Source of the DNA: Flavobacterium sp. 245
Lineage (GTDB): Bacteria; Bacteroidota; Bacteroidia; Flavobacteriales; Flavobacteriaceae
Length of the DNA: 64,000 nt
Direction of reading: 5' to 3'
Assembly (NCBI RefSeq): GCF_004362055.1
Contig: NZ_SNXB01000004.1
Span: 62,001-126,000, forward strand
Shown here piece after piece: positions 1 through 12,933 of this stretch. Under the pieces are notes generated by a model that saw only the letters and a list, made by a program, of their open reading frames with translations, searched no databases and was not told the origin of the DNA. The stretch's first letter is position 1; the number at the start of each line of letters is the position of its first letter. Position numbers and translations under genes: made by a program.

Positions 1-189
1 TGGGATCAACCAGCCGATGTTTCTGACTTAGAAGGATTTGCCCCACATGTTATAGAAAAACTGTTGGAATATGCAAGAGGAGGATTTCATATTTGGCCCA
101 AAGCTTCAAAAAGCGAATCCAAAGAAGAAATTAGAGAAGAAGTAAAAGAATCTAAAAAATTAAAAGAGTTTTATATCCAAAAAATTTGA
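1..189 (+). CDS. 3' end of an unidentified gene (partial)
   Basis: The frame is open from the first base of the window to a TGA at 187-189 and gives the last 62 residues of a protein whose start lies outside. It begins WDQPADVSDLEGFAPHV and ends in a Lys/Glu-rich tail of about 25 residues. I do not recognise the family. The codon use matches the neighbouring genes. It is on the same strand as the lipoprotein that follows 68 bases later, but nothing shows that they form one transcript. Confidence 0.6.
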   Translation, partial: WDQPADVSDLEGFAPHVIEKLLEYARGGFHIWPKASKSESKEEIREEVKESKKLKEFYIQKI

Positions 190-257
190 GTTTAATTACT
201 ATCTACAAAGGTAGTTTGCCATTTAATTCAAAACGCTATCTAAACAAACATTTCAAA

Positions 258-629
258 ATGAAAAAAATAGTATTCTTATTTCCAATACTGGCTTTAGTAT
301 CTTGTTACAACGCCGAACACAACTGCAAAGATTTTAAAAATGGAAAATTCAAATTTGAGTTTGAAGTAAATGGCGTAAAAAAAACAACTTTCTTTGAACG
401 AAAAGACAGCATTGAAATCGAAACTTTTGAAGGAAAAACAGATACTGCAACCATTCGCTGGGTAAGCGACTGCGAATATGTTTTGCAGAAAAAACACCCA
501 AAAAATATGGCCGAAGAAAAAGCAATCAGCATGAAAATTTTAACGACTTCGAAAGATTCATACACGTTTGAATTTGGCTTGGTTGGTTCTGAAGAGAAAC
601 AGAGAGGCAAGGTTTTCAAAATTGAGTAA
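258..629 (+). CDS. Small lipoprotein of unknown function
   Basis: This 123-residue protein has a type II signal peptide: MKK, a hydrophobic stretch, then the lipobox LVSC with the acylated Cys near residue 16. The ATG at 258 is chosen over a 24-residue TTG extension because it puts the signal peptide at the N-terminus. The mature part is rich in beta-type segments and charged residues and contains Cys residues at CKDF and SDCEYVL. From memory, small flavobacterial lipoproteins of this kind are sometimes listed as 'DNA topoisomerase IV'; nothing in the sequence supports that name. It probably sits in the inner leaflet of the outer membrane. No function can be assigned. Confidence 0.8.
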   Translation: MKKIVFLFPILALVSCYNAEHNCKDFKNGKFKFEFEVNGVKKTTFFERKDSIEIETFEGKTDTATIRWVSDCEYVLQKKHPKNMAEEKAISMKILTTSKDSYTFEFGLVGSEEKQRGKVFKIE

Positions 630-635
630 ACAGTT

Positions 636-660
636 AAAGTCCCAATTGGGGCTTTTTTTT
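636..660 (+). terminator. Intrinsic terminator of the lipoprotein gene
   Basis: A seven-pair stem (AAGTCCC with GGGGCTT, one G-U pair) around an AATT loop is followed by a run of T, starting 7 bases after the stop codon. Confidence 0.85.
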
Positions 661-748
661 TGACTTGCCACCAAGATTCAAAATCACTGAGTTTTTTTAT
701 CATATTGCAAAAACCTTTGCCGCTTTGTCCCTACGCTCATCTTTGCAT

Positions 749-772
749 AAAATAAACTTTAGTGTTTATTTT
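749..772 (+). promoter_or_regulatory. Inverted repeat upstream of the cNMP/CBS/DUF294 gene
   Basis: AAAATAAAC and GTTTATTTT form perfect nine-base arms around TTTAGT, centred about 58 bases before the ATG at 818. There is no T-tract typical of a terminator, so an operator or a small leader hairpin is possible. This is inference only. Confidence 0.35.
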
Positions 773-817
773 ACGTTTATGTTTTTAAATAGTATTTTAG
801 GACTTTAATCTAAACAA

Positions 818-2740
818 ATGAAAAATACCATTTCGCAAAGAGTTGCCGATTTTTTAAAAGATTTTCCTCCCTTTAACTTTTTACACAAAATAGATTTAGA
901 AAAATTATCTGAGCAGATTTCTATTGTTTACAAAGAAAAGGATGCTGTGATTTTTGCTGAAAATGATAAAACTCATGATTCTTTTTATGTAGTTCATAAA
1001 GGGGCTGTCGCACTTAAAAAAAGCACGAAAAATACGGTTTTAGATATGTGTGATGAAGGTGACATTTTTGGACTTCGTCCGCTTTTAGCACAAGAAAACT
1101 ACATTATGGAAGCTGTAGCGCATGAAGAAACTATTTTATACGCCATTCCGATTGCGGTTTTTAAACCTTATGCATTAGAAAACAGAAATGTTGGCAATTT
1201 CCTGATTGAAAGTTATGCTTCAAACACACGAAATCCGTATTCAGACATTCATAAAGATAAATTGTATGGAGACGATGATTTATTAAACGAAAATCGTCAT
1301 TCAAATAACGATTCATTTGATTTAACACCAATAAAGTATTCGAAAAAAATTGTTGCCTGCAGTCCGTCAACAACGGCTCGCGAGGTTGCAAAAATCATGA
1401 ATAAGAAAAAAGTCGGAGCCATATTAATTGTAGATGAAATGCTTCCGATTGGTATTTTGACCGATAAAGATCTTCGAAACAAAATCGTAACTGGCGATTA
1501 TTCGATTATGACTACTGCCGAAACTATAATGACGAAACCAGTCATTACCTATCCCAAAAAAATGACGGTTACTGAAGCGCAAATGGCAATGATGAAAAGT
1601 AATATCAGCCATTTATGCCTAACAAAAGATGGAACGGTCAATACAAAAGCTGTTGGAATTTTATCGAAACATGATGTTATGGTGGCGCTGGGAAATAATC
1701 CCGCAGTTTTAATTAAAGCACTAAAAAGAGCTAAGAAAACAAAGGAAATAAAACCAATAAGTAACCGAATCATGCAATTGCTTCAGGGATATTTAGATCA
1801 AAATATTCCTATGACATTGATTTCAAAAATTATAACTGAATTAAACGAAGCTTGCACTACACGTGTTATCGAGATTTGTCTGGAAAAAATGAGTAGTCCA
1901 CCTCCTGTAAAATTTGCATGGCTGGCGCTTGGAAGCCAAGGAAGGGGTGAACAAATGCTTCATACCGATCAGGATAATGCGATTGTTTATGAAAATGTTT
2001 CAGAAGTTTTTAGAGATGAAACAAAAATTTACTTTTTGAAATTTGCCTCTCTAGTTAACAAAGGACTTTTTGATATTGGTTATGATTATTGTCCTGCCGA
2101 TATGATGGCTTCAAGTCCAAAATGGTGCATGAGTCTTGACGAATGGAAAAACCAGGTACATCATTGGATCACCAATCCGGGAAAAAATGAAGTTTTGCTT
2201 TCTTTCATTTTCTTCGATTATAGTATGACTTATGGAGATGCCGAAATTGTAAATCAGTTATCAGATTCTATTTTTGAAAACGTAAAGGCAAATCCTATTT
2301 TTTATATGCATTTGGTAAGCGGTGCATTGCAAAGCCCTTCTCCAACAGGATTCTTCAGACAATTTCTAGTCGAACAAGACGGTGCCAACAAAGACAATTT
2401 TGATATTAAAAGACGAGCTTTAATGCCTTTGACCGACGCGGCTCGGGTTTTGATTTTATCACATTCCGTTAAATCTATCAGCAATACAGCCGAGCGTTTT
2501 GAAAAATTAGCCGAACTGGAACCTAACAATCGCGAATTGTATTTGTCTTGTTCGTATTCTTTTAAAGCTTTATTAAAATTTAGAACTAAACAAGGTCTTT
2601 TACATCATGATTCAGGTCAGTTTATTGCTTTGGAATCTTTATCAAAAATGGAAAAAATCAAACTGAAACGTACTTTTAAAACTATCAAAGAACTTCAGGA
2701 ACTTATTTCGGTGCGTTTTAATATCTCAAATCTGGTCTAA
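818..2740 (+). CDS. Cyclic-nucleotide-binding / tandem CBS / DUF294 nucleotidyltransferase-like regulator
   Basis: This 640-residue cytoplasmic protein has four parts. A cyclic-nucleotide-binding fold spans about residues 20-130 (GDIFGLRPLL). Two CBS domains follow at about 170-300 (VGAILIVDEMLPIGILTDKDLR, split here by position rather than quoted further). A DUF294 nucleotidyltransferase-like domain begins near 360, with GSQGRGEQ and TDQDN resembling the active site of GlnD-type transferases. A helical DUF294 C-terminal domain ends the protein. Such proteins are thought to sense nucleotides and act on a partner; the substrate is unknown. The stop codon is two bases before the ATG of the exonuclease gene, so the two are co-transcribed. 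In other bacteria this pair often lies near acetate uptake genes, but none is present here. Confidence 0.85.
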   Translation: MKNTISQRVADFLKDFPPFNFLHKIDLEKLSEQISIVYKEKDAVIFAENDKTHDSFYVVHKGAVALKKSTKNTVLDMCDEGDIFGLRPLLAQENYIMEAVAHEETILYAIPIAVFKPYALENRNVGNFLIESYASNTRNPYSDIHKDKLYGDDDLLNENRHSNNDSFDLTPIKYSKKIVACSPSTTAREVAKIMNKKKVGAILIVDEMLPIGILTDKDLRNKIVTGDYSIMTTAETIMTKPVITYPKKMTVTEAQMAMMKSNISHLCLTKDGTVNTKAVGILSKHDVMVALGNNPAVLIKALKRAKKTKEIKPISNRIMQLLQGYLDQNIPMTLISKIITELNEACTTRVIEICLEKMSSPPPVKFAWLALGSQGRGEQMLHTDQDNAIVYENVSEVFRDETKIYFLKFASLVNKGLFDIGYDYCPADMMASSPKWCMSLDEWKNQVHHWITNPGKNEVLLSFIFFDYSMTYGDAEIVNQLSDSIFENVKANPIFYMHLVSGALQSPSPTGFFRQFLVEQDGANKDNFDIKRRALMPLTDAARVLILSHSVKSISNTAERFEKLAELEPNNRELYLSCSYSFKALLKFRTKQGLLHHDSGQFIALESLSKMEKIKLKRTFKTIKELQELISVRFNISNLV

Positions 2741-2742
2741 TA

Positions 2743-3369
2743 ATGAGTTTATTCAATTTTTGGAAAAAAGAAGTAAATCTATTCGATGAAAACATTACCA
2801 TCGAACAAACCCGATTTGTAGTTCTGGATACTGAAACTACTGGTTTTGATTATGAAAATGACCGGATTTTATGCATTGGCGCTTTGGTTCTTCAAAACGG
2901 AATTATTTATGTCCAAGATAGTTTTGAACTTTACATCGAGCAAGATCATTATGATAAATCAACCGCTCAAATTCATGGCATTTTAAAAGCATTTGTAATT
3001 CAACGTCCAACCGAATTAGAGGCTTTACAGCAATTTTTATCTTTTCTTGGTGATGCAATTATCATTGCACATCACACCATTTTTGACGTTACAATTATAA
3101 ATAAAGCTCTTGAAAGAAACGGTTTGCCAGAACTAACTAATAAAAGGCTTGACACCGCGATATTATACAAAAAAACCTTAATCAAATCACATTTATTTGA
3201 ACGAAAAGATCATTACACATTAGACGATCTTGCAGATAAATTTGATATTTCTAAAAAAGATCGTCACACTGCTTTGGGCGATGCGTATATTACGGCAATC
3301 GCTTTCTTGAAAATTGTAAAAAAACTGAAAGAGAAAAAAGCGATTAATTTGAATTCTCTTTTTAAATAG
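2743..3369 (+). CDS. 3'-5' exonuclease, DEDDh (DnaQ/PolC epsilon-like) family
   Basis: This 208-residue protein carries all three exonuclease motifs of the DnaQ superfamily: Exo I VVLDTETTGFD near residue 30, Exo II AHHTIFDV near 108, and Exo III RHTALGDA near 178 with the His that defines the DEDDh subtype. It should remove nucleotides from 3' ends using two metal ions. There is no polymerase or UvrC-like extension, so it is a stand-alone nuclease. It sits two bases after the CBS/DUF294 gene and is probably translationally coupled to it. Its cellular substrate is unknown; a regulatory link with its neighbour is inference from synteny. Confidence 0.85.
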   Translation: MSLFNFWKKEVNLFDENITIEQTRFVVLDTETTGFDYENDRILCIGALVLQNGIIYVQDSFELYIEQDHYDKSTAQIHGILKAFVIQRPTELEALQQFLSFLGDAIIIAHHTIFDVTIINKALERNGLPELTNKRLDTAILYKKTLIKSHLFERKDHYTLDDLADKFDISKKDRHTALGDAYITAIAFLKIVKKLKEKKAINLNSLFK

Positions 3370-3405
3370 AAAACCTGACTCTTTAAGGCCAAGTTTTCCT
3401 CCATT

Positions 3406-4079
3406 TTAATTATCTATAAATAGTCGATACGGAAATACATTTGAAGATCTATTTTTTAAATTTTTCATGAAGCTATCGCATAAATAATCCCATTCTGCTT
3501 TAGACAAATGCTGTATTTCTTCTGAATTTGATTTAATAAAAATATCGACAGTACGACTAAAACCAGCTTTTACAGATATTTCTTTTCGCGTTCCTTTTTC
3601 AATCTTAATATCGGCAATTGAGTTTTTAAAATGATTAAATCCAAATGCTTTAATATCTGCAAAAGTTACAATTCGGCCTCGAGTTAATAATGCATTTCTG
3701 TATGCAAGGATTCGGTCTTTATTATTTTGCCTATTTAAGCCACCAACCGTATTTGTCATTAAAGTAACGGTTTTGCCAATGAAAAACAAATCATCTTTAG
3801 ATTCTAAAGTTGTTCCTGCTTTAATATCATTTCCTTCTTCAGCACAAGTTGACCAATAACTTATCGTAAACGATTTTCCAGTCGAATTATCAGCTGTGGG
3901 TTTAATCATTAAATAAGGATCATTATTTTTAGAAAAACTGCTTTCTTTAGCCTGTTGTTCAACAGAGGCTAACAGCTGATTTATTTCGACAAGAGAGCTG
4001 TTCATAAAATCCTTTCCTAAACCTGCAAAGGAGGAACTTTCGTCCTTAAGTAGATCTAATACATTTTCTAATAATTCGT
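3406..4079 (-). pseudogene. C-terminal fragment of a T6SS baseplate TssF-like gene
   Basis: The minus frame stays open from the stop at 3406 through the first ATG (4005) up to about 4080, where similarity to the expected protein ends. The translated part includes SFTISYWSTCAEEGND, TVGG and AYRNALLTRGRIVTFAD, which match what I recall of the C-terminal third of TssF baseplate proteins of Bacteroidota (T6SS subtype iii). Full TssF proteins are around 600 residues, so about two thirds is missing. The first ATG is not a plausible natural start, because coding-like sequence (KDESSSFAGLGKDF) continues upstream of it. Beyond about 4080 the DNA belongs to clpV in the opposite orientation. The TssF call is family recognition, not a search result. 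Confidence 0.6.
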
Positions 4080-4739
4080 GGAGCGCCTCCAGGATATGTT
4101 GGATATGAAGAAGGCGGATTGTTAGTTAACAAGATTCGTCAGAAGCCTTATTCCATAGTTCTATTTGATGAAATTGAAAAAGCGCATCCTTCTGTTTTTG
4201 ATGTTTTTCTTCAGATTATGGATGAAGGAAAACTTCATGATCGTTTAGGAAAAGAAGGCGATTTTTCAAACGCTATAATACTTTTTACTTCAAACATTGG
4301 CGCAGATCATATCGTTACTACTTTCAATAACGGCGAAATTCCAAGCTCAAATTCGTTAATGGAAATTATGGGAAACTATTTTCGACCTGAATTTTTAGGG
4401 CGTTTGACTGAAATTGTACCTTTTGCGCCTATCAGTAAAGAAAATGCATTGAAAATCTTCGAAATTCATCTTAAGAAAGAATTTATGGATTTATTGAAAA
4501 ACATAAATATTACAGTCGAAATCCCTATGGAAGCTAAAGTTTATCTAGCCGAAAACGGATATAATGCAAAGTATGGAGCAAGGCCTATTAAAAGTATTAT
4601 TAGAACGCATTTAAGAAGACCTTTAGCAAAAAAGATAATTTCTGGAGAAGTTAAAGATGGAGATATTATTTCTGTTAGCATTGAAAACAACGAAGTAAAA
4701 TGGATTAAAGAAGGAGTTATTTATTCTCATGAAAAATAA
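4080..4739 (+). pseudogene. C-terminal fragment of a ClpV/TssH (ClpB-like) AAA+ ATPase
   Basis: In frame from base 4080 the sequence reads GAPPGYVGYEEGG and continues into QKPYSIVLFDEIEKAHP (Walker B of the second AAA+ domain), a sensor region FTSNIGAD, the arginine-finger segment FRPEFLGRL and the ClpB-type C-terminal domain (YNAKYGARPIKS). The N-domain, first AAA+ domain and second Walker A are absent. The residues before GAPP do not resemble the expected SRLI, so the break is at about 4080. The only starts are internal, such as the TTG at 4119. Without a Walker A it cannot hydrolyse ATP. Given the TssF-like neighbour, it is most likely a remnant of the T6SS sheath-recycling ATPase rather than of the housekeeping ClpB. 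Confidence 0.8.
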
Positions 4740-4750
4740 ATCCCATAACT

Positions 4751-4785
4751 AAAAAACGCTAAGAAATTAATCTTAGCGTTTTTTC
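4751..4785. terminator. Bidirectional terminator between the clpV remnant and parC
   Basis: A 14-pair perfect stem (AAAAAACGCTAAGA with TCTTAGCGTTTTTT) around a six-base loop has A and T tracts on both sides, so it can end transcripts from either direction. It lies between two convergent reading frames. Confidence 0.9.
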
Positions 4786-4792
4786 AATTTTA

Positions 4793-7513
4793 TTATTCTA
4801 AAACCAAACCTATTTGTCCGTCGTCATCTAATTCGGTTTCGACTGAATCATCATCTTCTGATAATTCTGGTTTCTCCGGAACTTCTTCGACTGGCTCTTC
4901 ATAAGGAAGCGGATCTAACAAATTAACTTGTTTTAATTTATCTGTAGTTAATTGATTTCCTAAAGCTTTAAAACCTTTTACGGCTATAAAATCTTCCACA
5001 TCGATATGCAAATCTTCTTTCTGAACTCCTTTTACTTTTGCAAAAACCAATTGCGCAACCGGACGATAATCTGTCGACACAATTTCTAATTGTGAATTTG
5101 GATGATCTGTGATAAAACTTTCTTCTTTACCTTCATTTTCAACAAGAAAACGTTTTAAGAAATAACGTTCTTTTTCTCCGTCATAATAAATCGCAGAAAT
5201 TGGTTTTTTAGGTTTCCATTTCTCCAAAACAATCATATCTTCATCAAAATGAGTCGATAGTTCCGGAATTATAACTTTTACTTTTCCAGCTTGACTGATA
5301 ACCAAAATTTTATCACTTGGCTTAAATTCTCCTAATAATTCTCCTCTGGCGTCAACATTTAAACGTTTTACAGTATCGTCAAACCAAACTTTTCTTGGCA
5401 GTAAAGTCGAAATTCCTTTTTCTTTTAATTCGATTTTTTTGATCGGATATTTAGTAACCAGATTTCCTTTTGATGCACGACCTTTAATAGCTAATTTAGC
5501 AAAATCAATATCAAATTTCAGTTTCTTTATTGTTCCAATCTGACGCAATAAAATGGTCACAACCTCAGCTTCTCCATTCGGATTATGTGAAAAATAAACT
5601 ACTTGAGAACCATTTGTTCCGTTTGTTAAATCGTAAGCTTTATCACGTGTGACTCCACTAACATTAAAACGTTTGATATACGAAGGACCAGATTTACCAT
5701 CACGATACATCATGTTGTAAATCGTGCGTTTATCGCTCTTATCAAAAACAGCAACATGTATAATATCTTTCCCAATAAACGTTTTGGCATCAACTTTTGT
5801 AATCATCATTGTACCATCGCGCAAAAATACAATTACATCATCAATATCAGAACAATCGGCTACGTATTCGTCTTTCTTTAAACTTGTTCCTACGAAACCT
5901 TCTTCGCGGTTTACGTATAGTTTTGTGTTACGCAAAACTACTTTTGTTGCCTCAACGTTATCAAAAACACGAAGTTCTGTCTGACGTTCACGTCCTTTTC
6001 CGTATTTCTCTTTTAATTTGGTAAAATAAGCAATTGCAAAATCGGTTAAATGTTCCAGATTATGCTCAACTTCTTTCATTTCATCTTCTAACTTAGCTAT
6101 AAAATCATCAGCTTTATCAGAATCAAAACGTGTAATACGAATCATTGGAATCTGAGTCAGTCGTTGTAAATCATCGTCATTAATTTCTCTGACAAATGAT
6201 TTTTTGAAAGGCTCAAATCGGTCGTATAAATATTTATAAAGTGACTCTCTATCAGAATACAATTTGAAATCAATATACATTTCTTCACGAATGAAGATTT
6301 TCTCTAAAGTAGAAAAATGCCACTTATTTTTTAATTCTTCTAACTGAATTTCTAATTCCTGACGAAGCAAATCAACTGTTCTGTGTGTTGAAATTTTCAA
6401 CATTTCAGAAACTCCAATAAACAACGGTTTATTGTCTTCAATAACACATCCTAAAGGCGCAACAGAAGTTTCACAAGCCGTAAAAGCAAACAAAGCATCA
6501 ATTGTTTTATCTGGAGAAACACCTGGAAAGAGATGAATTAAAATTTCAACATCGGCTGCAGTATTGTCTTCAATTTTCTTGATTTTAATTTTACCTTTAT
6601 CATTGGCTTTCAAAATACTGTCAATTAAAGTCGATGTATTGGTCGAAAACGGAATCTGCGTAATCACCAATGTATTTTTGTCTAATTGCGAAATTTTAGC
6701 ACGCACACGCACACGACCTCCGCGAAGCCCATCATTATAATTCGACACATCGGCAATACCTTGTGTCATGAAATCAGGGTATAACGTAAAAGGTTTTCCT
6801 TTTAAAATCTTGATCGAAGCGTCGATTAACTCATTAAAGTTATGAGGGAGCACTTTAGTTGAAAGTCCAACCGCAATACCTTCTGCTCCTTGTGCTAAAA
6901 GCAATGGGAATTTTACCGGAAGATTGTTTGGTTCTGCACGACGACCATCATACGAAACGCCCCAATCTGTAATTTTTGGAGAATATAAAACCTCTAGAGC
7001 AAATTTTGATAAACGTGCTTCAATATAACGCGAAGCTGCTGCTCCGTCGCCCGTTAAAATATTACCCCAGTTTCCCTGACAGTCAATCAATAAATCCTTT
7101 TGACCAATTTGCACCATGGCGTCACCAATACTAGCATCTCCGTGTGGGTGATACTGCATGGTATGTCCTACTACATTGGCAACTTTGTTATAACGACCGT
7201 CATCCAGCTCTTTTAGAGAGTGCATAATACGACGCTGAACCGGTTTAAATCCGTCTTCGATAGCAGGAACTGCACGTTCCAGAATTACATACGAAGCATA
7301 ATCCAAAAACCAGTCTTTGTACATTCCCGTTACTTTGGTAATAACGTCCTCTCCTTCTTCTTCCTGATTTTCGTAAAAATGCTGTCCCTCGAAATTCTTT
7401 GCATCTACATTTATAATCTCATCTGAATCATCTTGATTTTCATCAAATTGATTTTCATCTTGATTATTATCGTCGTCGTTTGGAATTATGTTGTCGTCTT
7501 CTTCGTCTTTCAT
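4793..7513 (-). CDS. parC: DNA topoisomerase IV subunit A
   Basis: This 906-residue type IIA topoisomerase breakage-reunion subunit starts with an acidic N-terminal extension (about 55 residues, mostly D/E/N/Q). The winged-helix and tower domains follow, with the quinolone-region motif YHPHGDASIGDAM at 121-133 and the catalytic Tyr163 in ASRYIEARLS. The C-terminal half is a beta-pinwheel-type domain ending in an acidic tail. With ParE it decatenates and relaxes chromosomes. It ends a minus-strand operon with parE and a DUF1016 gene, starting 23 bases after the DUF1016 stop. The length and lack of a GyrA box fit ParC rather than GyrA. Confidence 0.9.
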   Translation of the reverse strand: MKDEEDDNIIPNDDDNNQDENQFDENQDDSDEIINVDAKNFEGQHFYENQEEEGEDVITKVTGMYKDWFLDYASYVILERAVPAIEDGFKPVQRRIMHSLKELDDGRYNKVANVVGHTMQYHPHGDASIGDAMVQIGQKDLLIDCQGNWGNILTGDGAAASRYIEARLSKFALEVLYSPKITDWGVSYDGRRAEPNNLPVKFPLLLAQGAEGIAVGLSTKVLPHNFNELIDASIKILKGKPFTLYPDFMTQGIADVSNYNDGLRGGRVRVRAKISQLDKNTLVITQIPFSTNTSTLIDSILKANDKGKIKIKKIEDNTAADVEILIHLFPGVSPDKTIDALFAFTACETSVAPLGCVIEDNKPLFIGVSEMLKISTHRTVDLLRQELEIQLEELKNKWHFSTLEKIFIREEMYIDFKLYSDRESLYKYLYDRFEPFKKSFVREINDDDLQRLTQIPMIRITRFDSDKADDFIAKLEDEMKEVEHNLEHLTDFAIAYFTKLKEKYGKGRERQTELRVFDNVEATKVVLRNTKLYVNREEGFVGTSLKKDEYVADCSDIDDVIVFLRDGTMMITKVDAKTFIGKDIIHVAVFDKSDKRTIYNMMYRDGKSGPSYIKRFNVSGVTRDKAYDLTNGTNGSQVVYFSHNPNGEAEVVTILLRQIGTIKKLKFDIDFAKLAIKGRASKGNLVTKYPIKKIELKEKGISTLLPRKVWFDDTVKRLNVDARGELLGEFKPSDKILVISQAGKVKVIIPELSTHFDEDMIVLEKWKPKKPISAIYYDGEKERYFLKRFLVENEGKEESFITDHPNSQLEIVSTDYRPVAQLVFAKVKGVQKEDLHIDVEDFIAVKGFKALGNQLTTDKLKQVNLLDPLPYEEPVEEVPEKPELSEDDDSVETELDDDGQIGLVLE

Positions 7514-7536
7514 TATTTATATTCGAAATTATAAAT

Positions 7537-8640
7537 TTATTTGTTTTCAAGAAGTTCTTTTAAAACTTCAACGCTTGGTAAAACGGTCTTATATTTACTG
7601 GCAAAAATCTGTTCGTTATTTTCTGGCAAAGTATATTTTACTACAGATTCACTTTTATTTTGACAAAGTACAATTCCGATTGTTTTATTTTCATCTTCCA
7701 ATCTCATTTCTCTGTCATAGTAGTTCACATACATTTGCATCTGACCTAAATCTTGATGTTTTAATTCACCTATTTTCAAATCGATAAGAACAAAACATCT
7801 TAGTATTCTATTATAAAAAACTAAATCGATCCTAAAATGTTTATCATCAAATGTAATTCTTTCCTGTCTTGCAACAAAAGTAAAACCATGACCTAATTCT
7901 AATAAAAAATGTTCTAATTTATTAATGATTTCTTGTTCTAATTGCGATTCTGAATACTGATGTAATTCAGGTAAACCCAAAAATTCTAAGATATAAGGAT
8001 CTTTAATAATATCTTTCGGTTTTTCAATAATTTGGCCTTTTTCCGAAAGTTTTAAAACCCCTTCTTTGTCTCTGCTTAATGCTAATCTTGTATAAAGTGC
8101 CGTGTCGTATTGACGTTTTAGTTCTCTAACGCTCCAATTGTTTTTTTCAGATTCTATTTTATAAAAACGTCTTTCTTTTTCATCATCAATTCTCATCAAA
8201 AAAACATAATGTGTAAAAGTTAATTTAAAAAAAGAAGACAATGTTTGATAGTCTGCTTTATTAAATTCAGCAGACGCTGTCTGCGTTTTTTGAGATTTGA
8301 ATTCCTCAGTCAGTGACTGGGTTTTTTGAATTTGTAAAATCCTAATCAGTGACTCGGATTTTGAATAAACTAAATAAAACTTCCTAATGTTCTCTAAACT
8401 GACCACCGAAAAACCTTTTCCAAATTCTCTCGTCAATTGCTTTGAAAGCTCTTTTAATAATTGTTTTCCGTATTCAGCTCTATTCTTTCCATTTTGTTCT
8501 TCTTCAACAATTATTCTTCCTATTTCAAAATAGGTAACTGTCATTGTTGAATTTACCGCACGTAAAACCTTTTGTCGGGCATTTTGCAATAACTCCGCAA
8601 CTTGCTGGAAAATAACTTTATTTTGAAGACCGTCTGACAC
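7537..8640 (-). CDS. DUF1016 (YhcG-type) PD-(D/E)XK nuclease-domain protein
   Basis: This 367-residue protein has the DUF1016 layout. An N-terminal helical domain spans about residues 10-120 (YFEIGRIIVEEEQNGKNRAEYG), and after a link the nuclease-like domain WSVRELKRQ...KDPYILEFLGL leads into the PD-(D/E)XK core: RIDLVFYN, then VLIDLKIGEL with the D-x-K pair, then GQMQMYVNYYD. A patchy segment at about 100-130 carries a repeated QKTQS/T word and is the least family-like part. It lies between parE and parC with gaps of 22 and 23 bases, so it is transcribed with them. DUF1016 proteins are common near restriction and mobile genes. A nuclease role is inferred from the fold; the target is unknown. 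Confidence 0.85.
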   Translation of the reverse strand: MSDGLQNKVIFQQVAELLQNARQKVLRAVNSTMTVTYFEIGRIIVEEEQNGKNRAEYGKQLLKELSKQLTREFGKGFSVVSLENIRKFYLVYSKSESLIRILQIQKTQSLTEEFKSQKTQTASAEFNKADYQTLSSFFKLTFTHYVFLMRIDDEKERRFYKIESEKNNWSVRELKRQYDTALYTRLALSRDKEGVLKLSEKGQIIEKPKDIIKDPYILEFLGLPELHQYSESQLEQEIINKLEHFLLELGHGFTFVARQERITFDDKHFRIDLVFYNRILRCFVLIDLKIGELKHQDLGQMQMYVNYYDREMRLEDENKTIGIVLCQNKSESVVKYTLPENNEQIFASKYKTVLPSVEVLKELLENK

Positions 8641-8662
8641 TTTTTGTTATTATAAAAAATTA

Positions 8663-10531
8663 CTAAACCTCCTCAAGCTCATCAATTTCAACCTTCAAAT
8701 TCTTAATAATAAACTCCTGTCTGTCTGGTGTATTTTTCCCCATATAGAAAGACAGCAATTGCTCTATTGAAGTATGTTTGTCCATCATAACAGGATCAAG
8801 ACGAATCGTGTCTCCAATAAAGTTTTTAAACTCATCTGGCGAAATCTCTCCCAAACCTTTAAATCGGGTGATTTCTGGCTTTGGTTTTAACTTTTCAATC
8901 GCATCTTTTCTTTCTTCTTCAGAATAACAATAAATGGTTTCTTTTTTGTTTCGAACCCTAAAAAGCGGTGTCTGCAAAATATACAAATGTCCTTCTTTGA
9001 TTAACTCAGGGAAAAACTGCAAAAAGAAAGTAATTAGAAGCAAACGAATGTGCATTCCATCGACATCGGCATCGGTTGCGATTACGATATTATTGTAACG
9101 TAGTTTTTCTAGTCCGTCTTCGATATCAAGCGCGGCTTGCAGTAAATTGAATTCTTCGTTTTCATACACAATTTTTTTAGTCATTCCGTATGAATTTAAT
9201 GGCTTACCTCGTAAACTGAAAACAGCCTGAGTATTTACATCGCGCGACTTGGTAATCGATCCAGAAGCAGAATCTCCCTCGGTTATAAAAAGCGTACTTT
9301 CTAAGTTTCTTGGGTTTTTTGTATCTGGAAGATGCGCTCTGCAGTCTCTTAATTTTTTATTATGCAGATTGGCTTTTTTAGCACGATCTGTGGCCAGTTT
9401 TCTAATTCCTGATAATTCTTTTCTTTCGCGTTCAGCCTGAAGAATTTTGCGTAACAAAGCTTCTGCAGTCGGCGGATTTTTATGCAGGTAATTATCTAAT
9501 TTGTTTTTTACAAAATCGTTTACGAAAGTACGAACAGAAACTGCTGGTGTTCCATCATCAGAACCCATATCTGTAGAACCTAATTTGGTTTTGGTCTGAG
9601 ACTCAAAAACCGGTTCCATCACTTTAATACTAATTGCACTCACAATCGATTTACGAACATCTGATGCCTCGAAATTTTTATTGTAAAACTCACGAATCGT
9701 TTTCACAACTGCTTCACGATAGGCCGCTAAGTGCGTTCCTCCCTGTGTTGTATTCTGACCGTTGACAAAAGAGTGATATTCTTCGCTGTATTGCGTTTTA
9801 CTGTGCGTTAAAGCGATCTCGATATCGTGATCTTTTAAATGTATAATTGGATATTCTAAGTCATCTTCACTGATTGTTTCTTCTAATAAATCACGAAGAC
9901 CATTCTCAGAAATATATTTTTCTCCGTTGAAAATAATAGTCAAACCATTGTTCAAATAACAATAGTTTTTAACCATTTTGATTACGTATTCTAAACGGAA
10001 TTTATAGTTTTTGAAAATAGTTTCATCTGGCGTAAAAGTTACTTTTGTTCCTTTACGTTTTGTAGTATCAACAATATCTTCTTCTAAAACCAAATTCCCA
10101 GCAGAAAACTCTGCTCCTTTTTGTTTGTCATCACGAACCGATTCTACACGGAAATAATTCGAAAGCGCATTAACTGCTTTTGTTCCGACACCATTCAAAC
10201 CAACTGATTTCTGGAAAGCTTTAGAATCGTACTTTCCTCCTGTATTCATTTTCGAAACTACATCAACTACTTTTCCTAACGGAATTCCACGTCCGTAATC
10301 ACGCACCGAAACCGTTTTGTCCTTGATAGTCACTTCAATAGTTTTTCCGGAGCCCATTACGAACTCGTCGATACAGTTATCTAAAACCTCTTTTAATAGA
10401 ATGTAAATACCATCATCTGGAGAAGAACCGTCTCCAAGTTTTCCGATGTACATTCCCGGACGCATACGGATATGTTCTTTCCAATCGAGTGATCGGATAT
10501 TATCTTCGGTATATTGATTTTGCTCTAGCAT
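8663..10531 (-). CDS. parE: DNA topoisomerase IV subunit B
   Basis: This 622-residue GyrB/ParE-type ATPase subunit contains a GHKL ATP-binding domain ([13 protein letters not shown], then DYGRGIPLG and [14 protein letters not shown]), a transducer domain, and a TOPRIM domain (ITEGDSASG with the catalytic Glu, then [11 protein letters not shown]). The ATG at 10531 ([11 protein letters not shown]) is preferred to one 14 codons upstream at 10573 because family members begin close to this point; the longer form is not excluded. It is the first gene of a parE-DUF1016-parC operon. It provides the ATP-driven strand-passage gate for ParC. Confidence 0.9.
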
Positions 10532-10694
10532 AAGGTGAATTGGATTTTTGGCTAATGTACCATTTATCGGCAAAAAATGAAAGCGTATTTTTTCTTTTGT
10601 TACGAATAATAACAGTTTTTAAATCTATTTAAATTGATTTTAAAAAAATACGACCGTTAAAAATATAAAAAAGAAGCGATGAAACAAAAAAATA

Positions 10695-11870
10695 CTATTT
10701 GATTCCGAGTACTTCTTTTGCTAGCGCAATCATTTCAGGCGTTCCGGTGTTTTTATTTTTTTCGTCGGAAAGTTTTACAACGCCTTGCCAATGTGTATTA
10801 TCTGGTTTTGTATCGGTTAATTTGATTACCATATTCATGGCGGGGAGGCCAACATCATTAGTGAAATTTGTTCCAATTCCAAACGACATTTTGATTTTGT
10901 CTTTACAGAAATCTACAATCGTTTTTACTTTTTCGTAATTAAGGGAATCTGAAAAAACAATGGCTTTCGATTTTGGATCAATTCCCATTTTTATATAATG
11001 CGAAATCACCTTTTGGGCAAACTCAATAGGGTTGCCACTGTCATGTCGAACGCCGTCAAAAAGTTTGGAATATTTTTTATCAAACTGATTGAAGAATATT
11101 TCTGTAGTATAAGTATCAGTTAAAGCAATTCCGAGGTCGCCTCCATAAACTTGCGTCCAATGTTCGAGACTTATCAAATTGGCCATTTTAAAACCATATT
11201 GCGCCGCATGAAACATAAACCATTCATGAGCGTGAGTACCCAAAGGCCTTCTGTTATTAACCATTGCAAAATGCACATTGCTGGTTCCAATAAAACTTTG
11301 TCCGCCATTTTCTCTCAAAGTTTCATTCACTAAAACATGCACATCATAAGAATGACGTCGTCTGGTACCAAACTCTAAAATCGAAACTCCTAATTTATTA
11401 TAATTGTCAATTTTATCTTTGGTCAGCTTTTTTATCGCCTCATCGTTTAAACGAATTAAATGATTTGATTTATAAAAAAGCTCCGAAATCAATGCCATTA
11501 GTGGTACTTCCCACAGAATAGTTCGGTACCAAAACCCTTCTACTGTAACTTTTATTTCTGAACCTTCTTGAGTAATATGAACCTCAGACGGATCATAGCT
11601 ATAGCCTTGCAGAAAATCTAAATAAGTTGGATCCAGATAAGGGCAGTAATGTGACAGATAATTTTTTTCTTCTTTTGTCAACCGAAGATCAGCCATGGCA
11701 TCAACAGATTTTCGAAGTAAATCTGCAAAACCTTCAGGAAAGACATGTTTTCCTCGGTTTATAAATCCATAACGTACTTTTGCTTTCGGGAAAAGCCTTA
11801 TTACAGCGTGCTGCATTGTGAATTTATAGAAATCATTATCCAAGATTGATTTCAAAAAAGTTGTCTCCAT
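10695..11870 (-). CDS. pncB: Nicotinate phosphoribosyltransferase
   Basis: This 391-residue enzyme converts nicotinate and PRPP to nicotinate mononucleotide in the NAD salvage (Preiss-Handler) pathway. Family marks are the N-terminal LDNDFYKFTMQHAV, the FGTRRRHSYDVH loop, TSNVHFA, TDTYTTEIFF and the PRPP/phosphate-binding region GVRHDSGNP. The length is normal for bacterial PncB. It is on the minus strand, 163 bases downstream of the parE start and 76 bases upstream of the next gene's start, and is probably a single-gene unit. Confidence 0.93.
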   Translation of the reverse strand: METTFLKSILDNDFYKFTMQHAVIRLFPKAKVRYGFINRGKHVFPEGFADLLRKSVDAMADLRLTKEEKNYLSHYCPYLDPTYLDFLQGYSYDPSEVHITQEGSEIKVTVEGFWYRTILWEVPLMALISELFYKSNHLIRLNDEAIKKLTKDKIDNYNKLGVSILEFGTRRRHSYDVHVLVNETLRENGGQSFIGTSNVHFAMVNNRRPLGTHAHEWFMFHAAQYGFKMANLISLEHWTQVYGGDLGIALTDTYTTEIFFNQFDKKYSKLFDGVRHDSGNPIEFAQKVISHYIKMGIDPKSKAIVFSDSLNYEKVKTIVDFCKDKIKMSFGIGTNFTNDVGLPAMNMVIKLTDTKPDNTHWQGVVKLSDEKNKNTGTPEMIALAKEVLGIK

Positions 11871-11946
11871 GGCATATTAATTCAATTCCTGAATTGCTAA
11901 GATACGGCAATTCGGTAAAAGAAGGAAATTTCAGCGATAACAGTTA

Positions 11947-12933
11947 TCAAAGTTTTTGTTTGGGTACGACTTTAAAATCAACTAAAGATCTTCCATTAAG
12001 ATAAAAAGAAATGAATCGTCCTAATTTTCTATTATAAGTTAGCTGAAATTCTAGCATTCCATCTTTTTCTTCTGGATTTTCAATCTTGACGTGTTCTTCC
12101 TTTTTGCCTAAATAACACAAATTATCAAGCCGTGAAATATTTTTAATTTTAAAGATAATCACATCTCCATCATTTGCTTGGATTATCCCTGAAAAGGGCC
12201 AAATGATTTCACATTTTTCTCTTATGAATTGATTATAAATAAGTGGTCCATCCAAAAACTCTTGTTTACTCCCTGTATTTTCTGCATACATCGAAGAATC
12301 TGGAAAATGCAGGGCATAAAAATACTTAGGATCAACATCAAAATAAATGGGTGTAAATTCTTTTACAACGGATTTTCGGTTTTCATCATAATAACCTTGA
12401 CCCCATGTAGCATCAACTAATATCCATTTACCATCAATTTGCACTGTATTCCAGGCGTGATTTGATCCCAATCTTCTTCGTCCAATATCACTCAACAATC
12501 TTTTAGAATCGCCTGTTACTACTTGACATTTTAGCCCAATTTTCATTGCTAAGTGTGCATATAATAAAGAAAAGCCCTCACACACTGCTTTTCTAGACCG
12601 AAATGCTTTTTGTGTTGCATTTGCCTGTAGCAACTGCTTTACTTTTGCCCAATCGGCTTCATTTTTAGAACTATATGTTTTTTGTTTTGGAGGATCTAAA
12701 AAGGTTTTTAAATCGTAATCTAAATTCAGTGCAATCCAGCTATAAATTGCTCTTGCCAGATCCTGTTCTGATGTAAAATCCTTCTGAATTCTTTCGGCTA
12801 GTTTCTCAGTACTTCCAAAATTCGGATACTTTAAAACAATACTGTCGATAGCATTATATTTTTGTGAATAAGAAGAACTGGTAAAAATGATGTTCAAAAA
12901 AAAGAATAAAAAAAGGATTTTTTTTAATGGCAT
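11947..12933 (-). CDS. Exported transglutaminase-like protein (copy 1)
   Basis: This 328-residue protein has a Sec signal peptide (cleavage near the SYSQ segment, residue 24) and a transglutaminase-like cysteine protease core. The triad is visible: Cys118 in KAVCEGF, His159 in SNHAWN and Asp174 in LVDATWGQGYY. The C-terminal 100 residues form a beta-rich domain of unknown role. It is a tandem paralogue of the next gene, sharing motifs and order throughout. Bacterial members usually act as proteases or amide-modifying enzymes on the cell surface or in the periplasm; the substrate is unknown. Confidence 0.8.
   Translation of the reverse strand: MPLKKILFLFFFLNIIFTSSSYSQKYNAIDSIVLKYPNFGSTEKLAERIQKDFTSEQDLARAIYSWIALNLDYDLKTFLDPPKQKTYSSKNEADWAKVKQLLQANATQKAFRSRKAVCEGFSLLYAHLAMKIGLKCQVVTGDSKRLLSDIGRRRLGSNHAWNTVQIDGKWILVDATWGQGYYDENRKSVVKEFTPIYFDVDPKYFYALHFPDSSMYAENTGSKQEFLDGPLIYNQFIREKCEIIWPFSGIIQANDGDVIIFKIKNISRLDNLCYLGKKEEHVKIENPEEKDGMLEFQLTYNRKLGRFISFYLNGRSLVDFKVVPKQKL

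What the first reader, a model, noticed from the sequence alone, without database searches (positions are those of the whole stretch)
3406..4739. Head-to-head T6SS remnants joined at about base 4080
Seen: a minus-strand TssF-like C-terminal fragment and a plus-strand ClpV C-terminal fragment meet at about 4080, each losing its N-terminal part; the ClpV frame begins abruptly at GAPPGYVGYEEGG. Both 3' ends are intact. Inference: a deletion plus inversion removed the core of a type VI secretion locus between the exonuclease gene and parC, leaving two stubs.
Basis: partly seen in the sequence, partly recalled or inferred. Interest (0 to 1): 0.65.

Follow-up and report, generated by a model that had tools for sequence, protein, structure and literature searches.

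The report
Repeated scar of a lost weapon
The window holds the scar of a deleted bacterial killing machine (a type VI secretion system), and many related species seem to have lost the same machine separately by cuts that often fall at the same few spots, which is unusual and has no identified cause.

Summary
A 3'-terminal piece of tssF (minus strand) meets a 3'-terminal piece of clpV (plus strand) at bases 4077-4080; TssC, the tssF 5' part and the clpV 5' part were not found elsewhere in the genome. "Deletion plus inversion" is half right: in the intact relative G079 tssF and clpV already point outward, about 29 kb apart, between the exonuclease gene and parC, so one deletion is enough.

The surprise is recurrence. 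At least 22 of 398 congeneric genomes (this one included), plus one named Flavobacterium, have clpV cut near the same Gly codon (GAPPGYVG), joined to tssF at one of six points (four of them used repeatedly) or, once, upstream of tssF. In two gene trees no two such species with the same junction form a clade. One junction class also occurs at a second chromosomal locus. Left and right sites share no clear homology, and same-class stubs are not more alike near the junction. The 23 clpV stubs carry no stops, so the deletions look recent.

Best reading: repeated, recent, homology-free deletions with preferred endpoints. The cutting agent is unknown.

The parts
2743..3369 (+). Exonuclease gene, left flank of the lost T6SS locus
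   Evidence: ORF; Pfam RNase_T E 3e-28; same neighbour in intact G079
3406..4078 (-). tssF 3' stub (codons ~390-612 of 612); open frame runs on to 4125
   Evidence: tblastn 91% to G079 TssF; no stops
4077..4080 (.). Deletion junction: tssF side ...AATTC(4077), clpV side starts (T4079)GG4080 of the Gly602 codon
   Evidence: alignment to intact tssF and clpV
4079..4739 (+). clpV 3' stub (from codon ~601; GAPPGYVG to the stop); frame open from 4050; first listed start TTG 4119
4751..4784 (.). Inverted repeat (CGCTAAGA...TCTTAGCG) between the clpV stub and parC, terminator-like by eye; similar ones before parC in intact G079 and in G103, G289, G121
   Evidence: self inverted match; read in sequence
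4793..7513 (-). parC, right flank of the lost locus

Best explanation
The window holds a recent scar of one internal deletion (about 28 kb, judged from the intact relative G079) that removed a Bacteroidota-type T6SS and left the 3' ends of its two outermost, divergent genes joined. Shown: in at least 23 genomes the same kind of deletion has its clpV end at or within a few bases of one Gly codon (602), joined to six tssF points (codons ~24, 345, 390 and 581 in more than one species; ~378 and ~427 once each) or, once, to a point upstream of tssF. Shown within the limits: the left sites have no clear homology to clpV602. Inferred: these are separate recent events. Inferred: an unidentified sequence-preferring cut-and-join activity (nuclease, recombinase, or type II topoisomerase subunit exchange) breaks clpV at Gly602 and tssF at preferred sites, and the DNA between is lost. 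The stubs are byproducts, not working genes.
For: Intact layout: exo(+) - tssF(-) - T6SS genes - clpV(+) - parC(-) in G079. In one search's table 25 genomes have tssF and clpV matches on one contig 22-38 kb apart (my count). Recurrence: clpV602 in 22 of 398 genus genomes, own genome included, plus Flavobacterium sp. ASV13. In one search the clpV match starts 0-7 nt before the GG of codon 602 in 21 of 23; in G210 and G333 it starts 6 and 43 nt after it, but the GSPPGYVG codons follow the junction there too. Other right endpoints are few: codon 499 x3, and ~3, 31, 680, 695, 770 once each. 31 right points fall on 7 codons (random mean 30.4, minimum of 20,000 draws 27); 31 left points on 10 codons (random mean 30.3, minimum 26) (hand-made lists, near-equal codons pooled). 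Independence: no two clpV602 stubs of the same class form a clade in the parC tree (22 such tips of 49) or the clpV-3' tree (23 of 58). Same-class stubs (18 in three classes) are not closer to each other within 45-90 nt of the junction (p 0.46-0.88). The codon-24/602 class occurs in G375 away from exo/parC, with flanks that look by eye like those of the intact T6SS of G136. No clear homology between left sites and clpV602. Recency: 0 of 23 clpV stubs have a stop or missing codon over 208 codons; dN/dS 0.051 stub-stub vs 0.044 intact-intact. 0 of 14 longer tssF stubs have stops. Whole TssC: 0 of 35 deletion or empty genomes (G345 has a fragment), 5 of 5 intact.
Against: No enzyme was found, and no genome was caught mid-event. 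tssF-side 'TC' is also simply the complement of conserved Glu/Asp codons. The junction rule YCN|NGR was made from the same data (8 of 8 distinct left sites within 1 nt, P about 5e-5 before any correction for choosing the rule; TC alone 6 of 8, P 0.003) and has misfits: G230's own sequence (...TTTGA), G053 (...CTC TTA GGGG), and G015, which joins the codon-390 site to a clpV site without GG. Bases between TC and GG often match neither parent clearly, so breakpoints are uncertain by 1-2 nt, and left and right matches overlap by 3-4 nt in G049, G305, G358 and G057, which a microhomology mechanism would also give. One left site (codon 390) shows 0.60 flank identity to clpV at one register. Signs of some ageing: in G358 the ~30-codon tssF piece is split over two frames; dN/dS near the cut (codons 603-639) is 0.036 in stubs vs 0.020 in intact; tssF 0.087 vs 0.060. 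Tree supports are uneven; random-endpoint nulls assume uniform breakage. Among 42 ClpV-like matches listed for other genera (a capped list) none is a ~220-aa stub, so the phenomenon may be peculiar to this genus.
Confidence: 0.6

Rival explanations
1. A few old deletion alleles have spread among species by homologous recombination through the exo/tssF and clpV/parC arms, so each junction class is one event.
For: The same classes (24/602, 345/602, 581/602, 419/499) sit in scattered species; it would need only about seven clpV602 founding events.
Against: No excess similarity of same-class stubs even 0-45 nt from the junction. clpV-3' groups some stubs with their species' intact relatives, e.g. 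G265 with G079, G207 with G109. One class occurs at another locus. It still leaves several founding events at nearly the same clpV base.
Confidence: 0.15
2. One ancestral clpV602 deletion, with later erosion only on the tssF side; intact species re-gained the T6SS by recombination.
For: Explains the constant clpV end; sister pairs in the parC tree with different tssF ends and the same clpV end (G053/ASV13, G088/G333, G154/G393, G340/G000).
Against: Old stubs should decay, but 23 of 23 clpV stubs and 14 of 14 longer tssF stubs are open. Each later erosion would have to stop at the old junction. G375 is at another locus.
Confidence: 0.1
3. The stub is kept because the ClpV C-terminal fragment (or the TssF fragment) has a function of its own, and selection picks this boundary.
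For: dN/dS about 0.05 and no stops in 23 stubs.
Against: tssF pieces from 184 to 610 codons are equally open, so recency explains both. The fragment lacks Walker A. A protein-level advantage would not need the same base.
Confidence: 0.1
4. Insertion-sequence pairs recombined and the leftover copy was later excised.
For: An IS-like contig end (named from recall) lies next to a TssC fragment in G345.
Against: At 22 of 23 clpV602 junctions the gap between left and right matches is at most 43 nt; in G393 it is 1 kb and holds T6SS-type genes.
Confidence: 0.04
5. Assembly artefact.
For: None found; raw reads not available.
Against: Same junction type in 23 genomes, including single-contig assemblies G207 and G358 (tables); mid-contig in the window's genome.
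Confidence: 0.01

Closest known systems
Loss of T6SS subtype iii in Bacteroidota (patchy presence in Flavobacterium; PMC10781749, passages seen)
   Same: The lost locus is of this kind by its genes in the intact relative G079: TssC, TssN, TssO, TssD, TssG, TssF; the paper says only a fraction of Flavobacterium species encode it.
   Different: In the passages I saw, that paper reports presence and absence, not junctions; here the deletions recur at nearly the same bases.
Recurrent gene-cluster deletion between short repeats or IS copies (general knowledge)
   Same: Large one-step loss of a costly accessory locus.
   Different: No clear repeat or homology at the ends, and no element at the junctions.
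Type II topoisomerase (gyrase) mediated illegitimate recombination (recalled, not tested)
   Same: Homology-free joins at preferred cleavage sites; the retained ends tend to start N-G-R.
   Different: No cleavage data; keeping both ends does not fit the simple 4-nt stagger well.

Membership tests
T6SS subtype iii locus (as source of the remnant) | TssN/TssO membrane-complex genes with TssB/C/D/F/G in the intact locus | tested here: met
   In intact relative G079: TssN 1e-72, TssC 6e-237, TssF 4e-7, VipA-like 0.004 (below Pfam cut-off); TssO 1e-20, TssD 3e-43, TssG 7e-7. TssP, TssQ and TssR were not identified.
Functional T6SS in this genome | Sheath (TssC), complete ClpV and TssF present | tested here: not met
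   TssC best E 0.23 and none at the 0.001 cut-off; TssF codons 1-390 none at E<=1; ClpV only as stub.
Deletion by homologous or repeat recombination | Repeat or homology between the two endpoints | tested here: not met
   Mean flank identity between each left site and clpV602 over nine registers 0.09-0.49, apart from one 0.60 (codon-390 site). Longest shared words in three genomes: direct 11-12, as in shuffled DNA (11-12); inverted 12-13, up to 2 longer than shuffled; G187 gave no result. clpV499 was not tested, and 3-4 nt overlaps occur in four stubs.
Site-specific recombinase system | Recombinase gene and defined att sites on both sides | tested here: inconclusive
   A preferred right site and several left sites with only a weak, post hoc shared motif; no recombinase was searched for or linked.
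Gyrase/topoisomerase illegitimate recombination | Endpoints at mapped cleavage sites | not testable with these tools
   Needs cleavage mapping.
   Same orientation in intact loci.

The most novel reading that the evidence does not exclude
Flavobacterium species carry an enzyme-driven, site-preferring excision that cuts their own T6SS out between clpV Gly602 and a small set of tssF sites: a genus-wide, repeatedly used one-way off-switch for a weapon, with short-lived T6SS-minus lineages.
Probability: 0.25. Interest if true: 0.85.

Novelty: new variant of a known kind. Interest (0 to 1): 0.62.

Why it matters
Loss of T6SS loci is common (general knowledge), but loss at nearly the same base in many species without homology would mean the loss is not random breakage plus selection. 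It would give a genus in which a cut-and-join activity acting on T6SS genes can be looked for directly, and a clock for how long T6SS-minus lineages last. In my five literature searches (listings only, plus passages of PMC10781749) no listed title or abstract start is about such junctions; this covers open-licence PMC papers only.

Tried and rejected
Inversion: rejected. CRISPR-like left-over of the lost clpV side in stub genomes: a degenerate pattern with up to 2 mismatches gave no exact match in 22 stub genomes; the hits there (G000 one, G265 one, G345 two) have 2 mismatches, while 6 of 6 intact genomes hit their own clpV exactly. The tssF side was not tested this way. Phage carrier of the clpV end: 2 IMG/VR contigs match the pattern; both hold a complete-looking ClpV (46-50% identity) with other T6SS-like genes, not a stub. 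Rfam over bases 1-12000, gathering cut-off: nothing. PDB search of the clpV piece: the listed names are Clp/Hsp100-type proteins but for one odd label. YhcG-type nuclease gene beside parC as culprit: present in some cut species, with edge-of-locus matches in intact G346 and G004, and not beside parC in others such as G207 and G393, so no clear link. More genus genomes by 'relatives': the same-genus matches had all been seen before. A junction pattern over fetched loci: no match (my pattern was mistyped for this site, so it says nothing). The search for related loci on genome contigs returned 80 loci, only one of them titled Flavobacterium. Deletions with other right points (G396, G015, G047, G296, G323, G304) look like ordinary scattered ones.

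Full report
What is there. On the minus strand, 3406-4078 encodes the C-terminal third of a TssF protein; on the plus strand, 4079-4739 encodes the C-terminal quarter of a ClpV protein. The frames meet at 4077-4080. The rest of the T6SS was not found in this 99.98%-complete assembly: TssC best E 0.23, TssF codons 1-390 no match at E<=1, ClpV only as this stub (two other long Clp genes ring). Other T6SS genes were not searched one by one.

Intact state. In the relative G079 the same two chromosomal genes flank a locus of about 30 kb with tssF(-) first and clpV(+) last. Its genes include TssC, TssF, TssN, VgrG-type and VipA-like proteins (VipA-like is below its cut-off) and TssD, TssO, TssG and a gp25-type protein, so it is a T6SS of the Bacteroidota kind. 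In the table 25 genomes have tssF and clpV matches on one contig 22-38 kb apart (my count). Not all lie at this locus: of 28 intact clpV loci looked at, 17 had parC (over 700 codons) on the same fetched stretch and 11 did not. One deletion gives the window's arrangement; no inversion is needed.

The recurrence. I fetched loci of genomes whose tssF and clpV matches lie close together, and some others. At least 22 of the 398 genus genomes, the window's own included, and Flavobacterium sp. ASV13 (L069) have clpV beginning at or near codon 602. Protein alignments start at codons 573-603, because some run on into tssF by chance. The base alignments start 0-7 nt before the GG of codon 602 in 21 of 23; in G210 and G333 they start 6 and 43 nt after it, where the sequence has diverged, but the GSPPGYVG codons follow the junction. 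The tssF side ends at codon ~24 (G053, G202, G210, G375, G345), ~345 (G154, G088, G340, G390), ~378 (G083), ~390 (window genome G000, G207), ~427 (G057), ~581 (G108, G265, G267, G049, ASV13, G305, G333, G358, G102), or upstream of a complete tssF (G393). Three more join tssF ~419 to clpV 499 (G006, G230, G008). The rest are scattered: G015 (390/680), G396 (423/31), G304 (424, no clpV), G047 (335/770), G323 (185, near-complete clpV), G296 (clpV 695 only). In G060 the codon-581 stub adjoins an ORF with no Pfam family, at another locus. I did not fetch every genome, so counts are lower bounds.

Chance. With uniform random endpoints, 31 left points would fall on about 30 codons (observed 10) and 31 right points on about 30 (observed 7). 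The genomes are related, so the number of independent events matters. I built trees of parC (49 tips) and clpV codons 603-810 (58 tips). No two clpV602 stubs of one class form a clade in either, and several stubs are nearest to an intact species (G265 with G079, G207 with G109). Node supports are uneven. If losses are irreversible and junctions do not travel, that implies some 20 separate events. Travel by recombination was tested on 18 stubs of the three larger classes: they are no more alike near the junction than with class labels dealt at random. The codon-24/602 class also occurs in G375, where neither exo nor parC is near; its flanking ORFs look by eye like those of the intact T6SS of G136, so the preference goes with the T6SS genes, not with their neighbours.

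Mechanism. The left sites show no clear homology to clpV602: mean flank identities 0.09-0.49, one register 0.60 for the codon-390 site (clpV499 not tested). In four stubs the left and right matches overlap by 3-4 nt, so short microhomology cannot be ruled out there. On the sense strand of both genes the retained piece tends to start N-G-R (tssF NGA, or NGG for the codon-378 and upstream sites; clpV YGG). This rule was made after seeing the data: 8 of 8 distinct left sites within 1 nt, P about 5e-5 uncorrected, with misfits G230, G053 and G015. It would fit a cut-and-join enzyme with a short symmetric preference, but no gene is implicated. I put 0.6 on recurrent homology-free deletion with preferred ends and 0.25 on a dedicated excision system.

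Age. 0 of 23 clpV stubs have a stop or missing codon over 208 codons; mean dN/dS is 0.051 stub-stub (141 of 253 pairs usable), 0.048 stub-intact (325 of 667) and 0.044 intact-intact (212 of 406) (saturated or failed pairs dropped, pairs not independent). In codons 603-639, next to the cut, it is 0.036 in stubs against 0.020 in intact. For tssF codons 430-609 the ratios are 0.087, 0.084 and 0.060 (46, 66 and 44 pairs), with 0 stops in the 14 longer stubs. The nine stubs with only ~30 tssF codons were left out of that test; one of them, G358, has its tssF piece split over two frames, a sign of decay. A small relaxation with little wreckage means that the deletions are young compared with the species. 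Function of the stub is a less likely reading, since tssF pieces of very different length are equally open.

Controls and limits. Whole TssC is missing from 35 of 35 cut or empty genomes (G345 keeps a fragment, codons 319-455) and present in 5 of 5 intact ones (G207 and G390 are 70% and 81% complete). Among 42 ClpV-like matches listed for other genera, a capped list, the shortest open frame is 550 aa, so none is a ~220-aa stub. Raw reads and multiple strains per species were not available.

Place in the literature. T6SSiii is known to be patchy in Flavobacterium (PMC10781749, passages). The listings of my searches showed no paper on such junctions.

Noticed in passing
window 7537-8640 (-): A YhcG/DUF1016 PDDEXK nuclease gene sits next to parC; a close relative lies beside parC in G267, G265, G015, G049, G057, G333, G340 and G103 (in two pieces in G396), and not in others such as G207 and G393.
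   Followed up: partly
L055:8037-11422 and L068:4895-8275: Some species (G207, G049, G393) carry two extra genes (a lipoprotein-like ORF and a di-haem cytochrome c peroxidase, the latter checked in G207) between the exonuclease gene and tssF, absent in the window.
   Followed up: no
L188:7752-8538 (G060): A tssF codon-581 stub at another locus runs straight into an ORF with no Pfam family and a following small gene, perhaps an effector end with its partner.
   Followed up: partly
L245:1495-2525 (G345): A 143-aa TssC C-terminal fragment without stops lies beside an IS-like sequence at a contig end, on another contig than the tssF/clpV stub.
   Followed up: partly
L179, L024, L216, L217: The T6SS sits at a second chromosomal locus (sigma-factor-like gene on the tssF side, a ~92-aa gene on the clpV side; named by eye) in G136 and, as a stub, G375; G250 shares the clpV side.
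   Followed up: yes
G094, G179, G056, G098 (tables): Some congeners have clpV and tssF as close convergent neighbours, a different gene order of the T6SS locus.
   Followed up: no
L193, L194, L195: G103, G289 and G121 have no tssF or clpV match between the exonuclease gene and parC but, read by eye, keep a small lipoprotein-like gene resembling the one upstream of tssF in intact loci.
   Followed up: no
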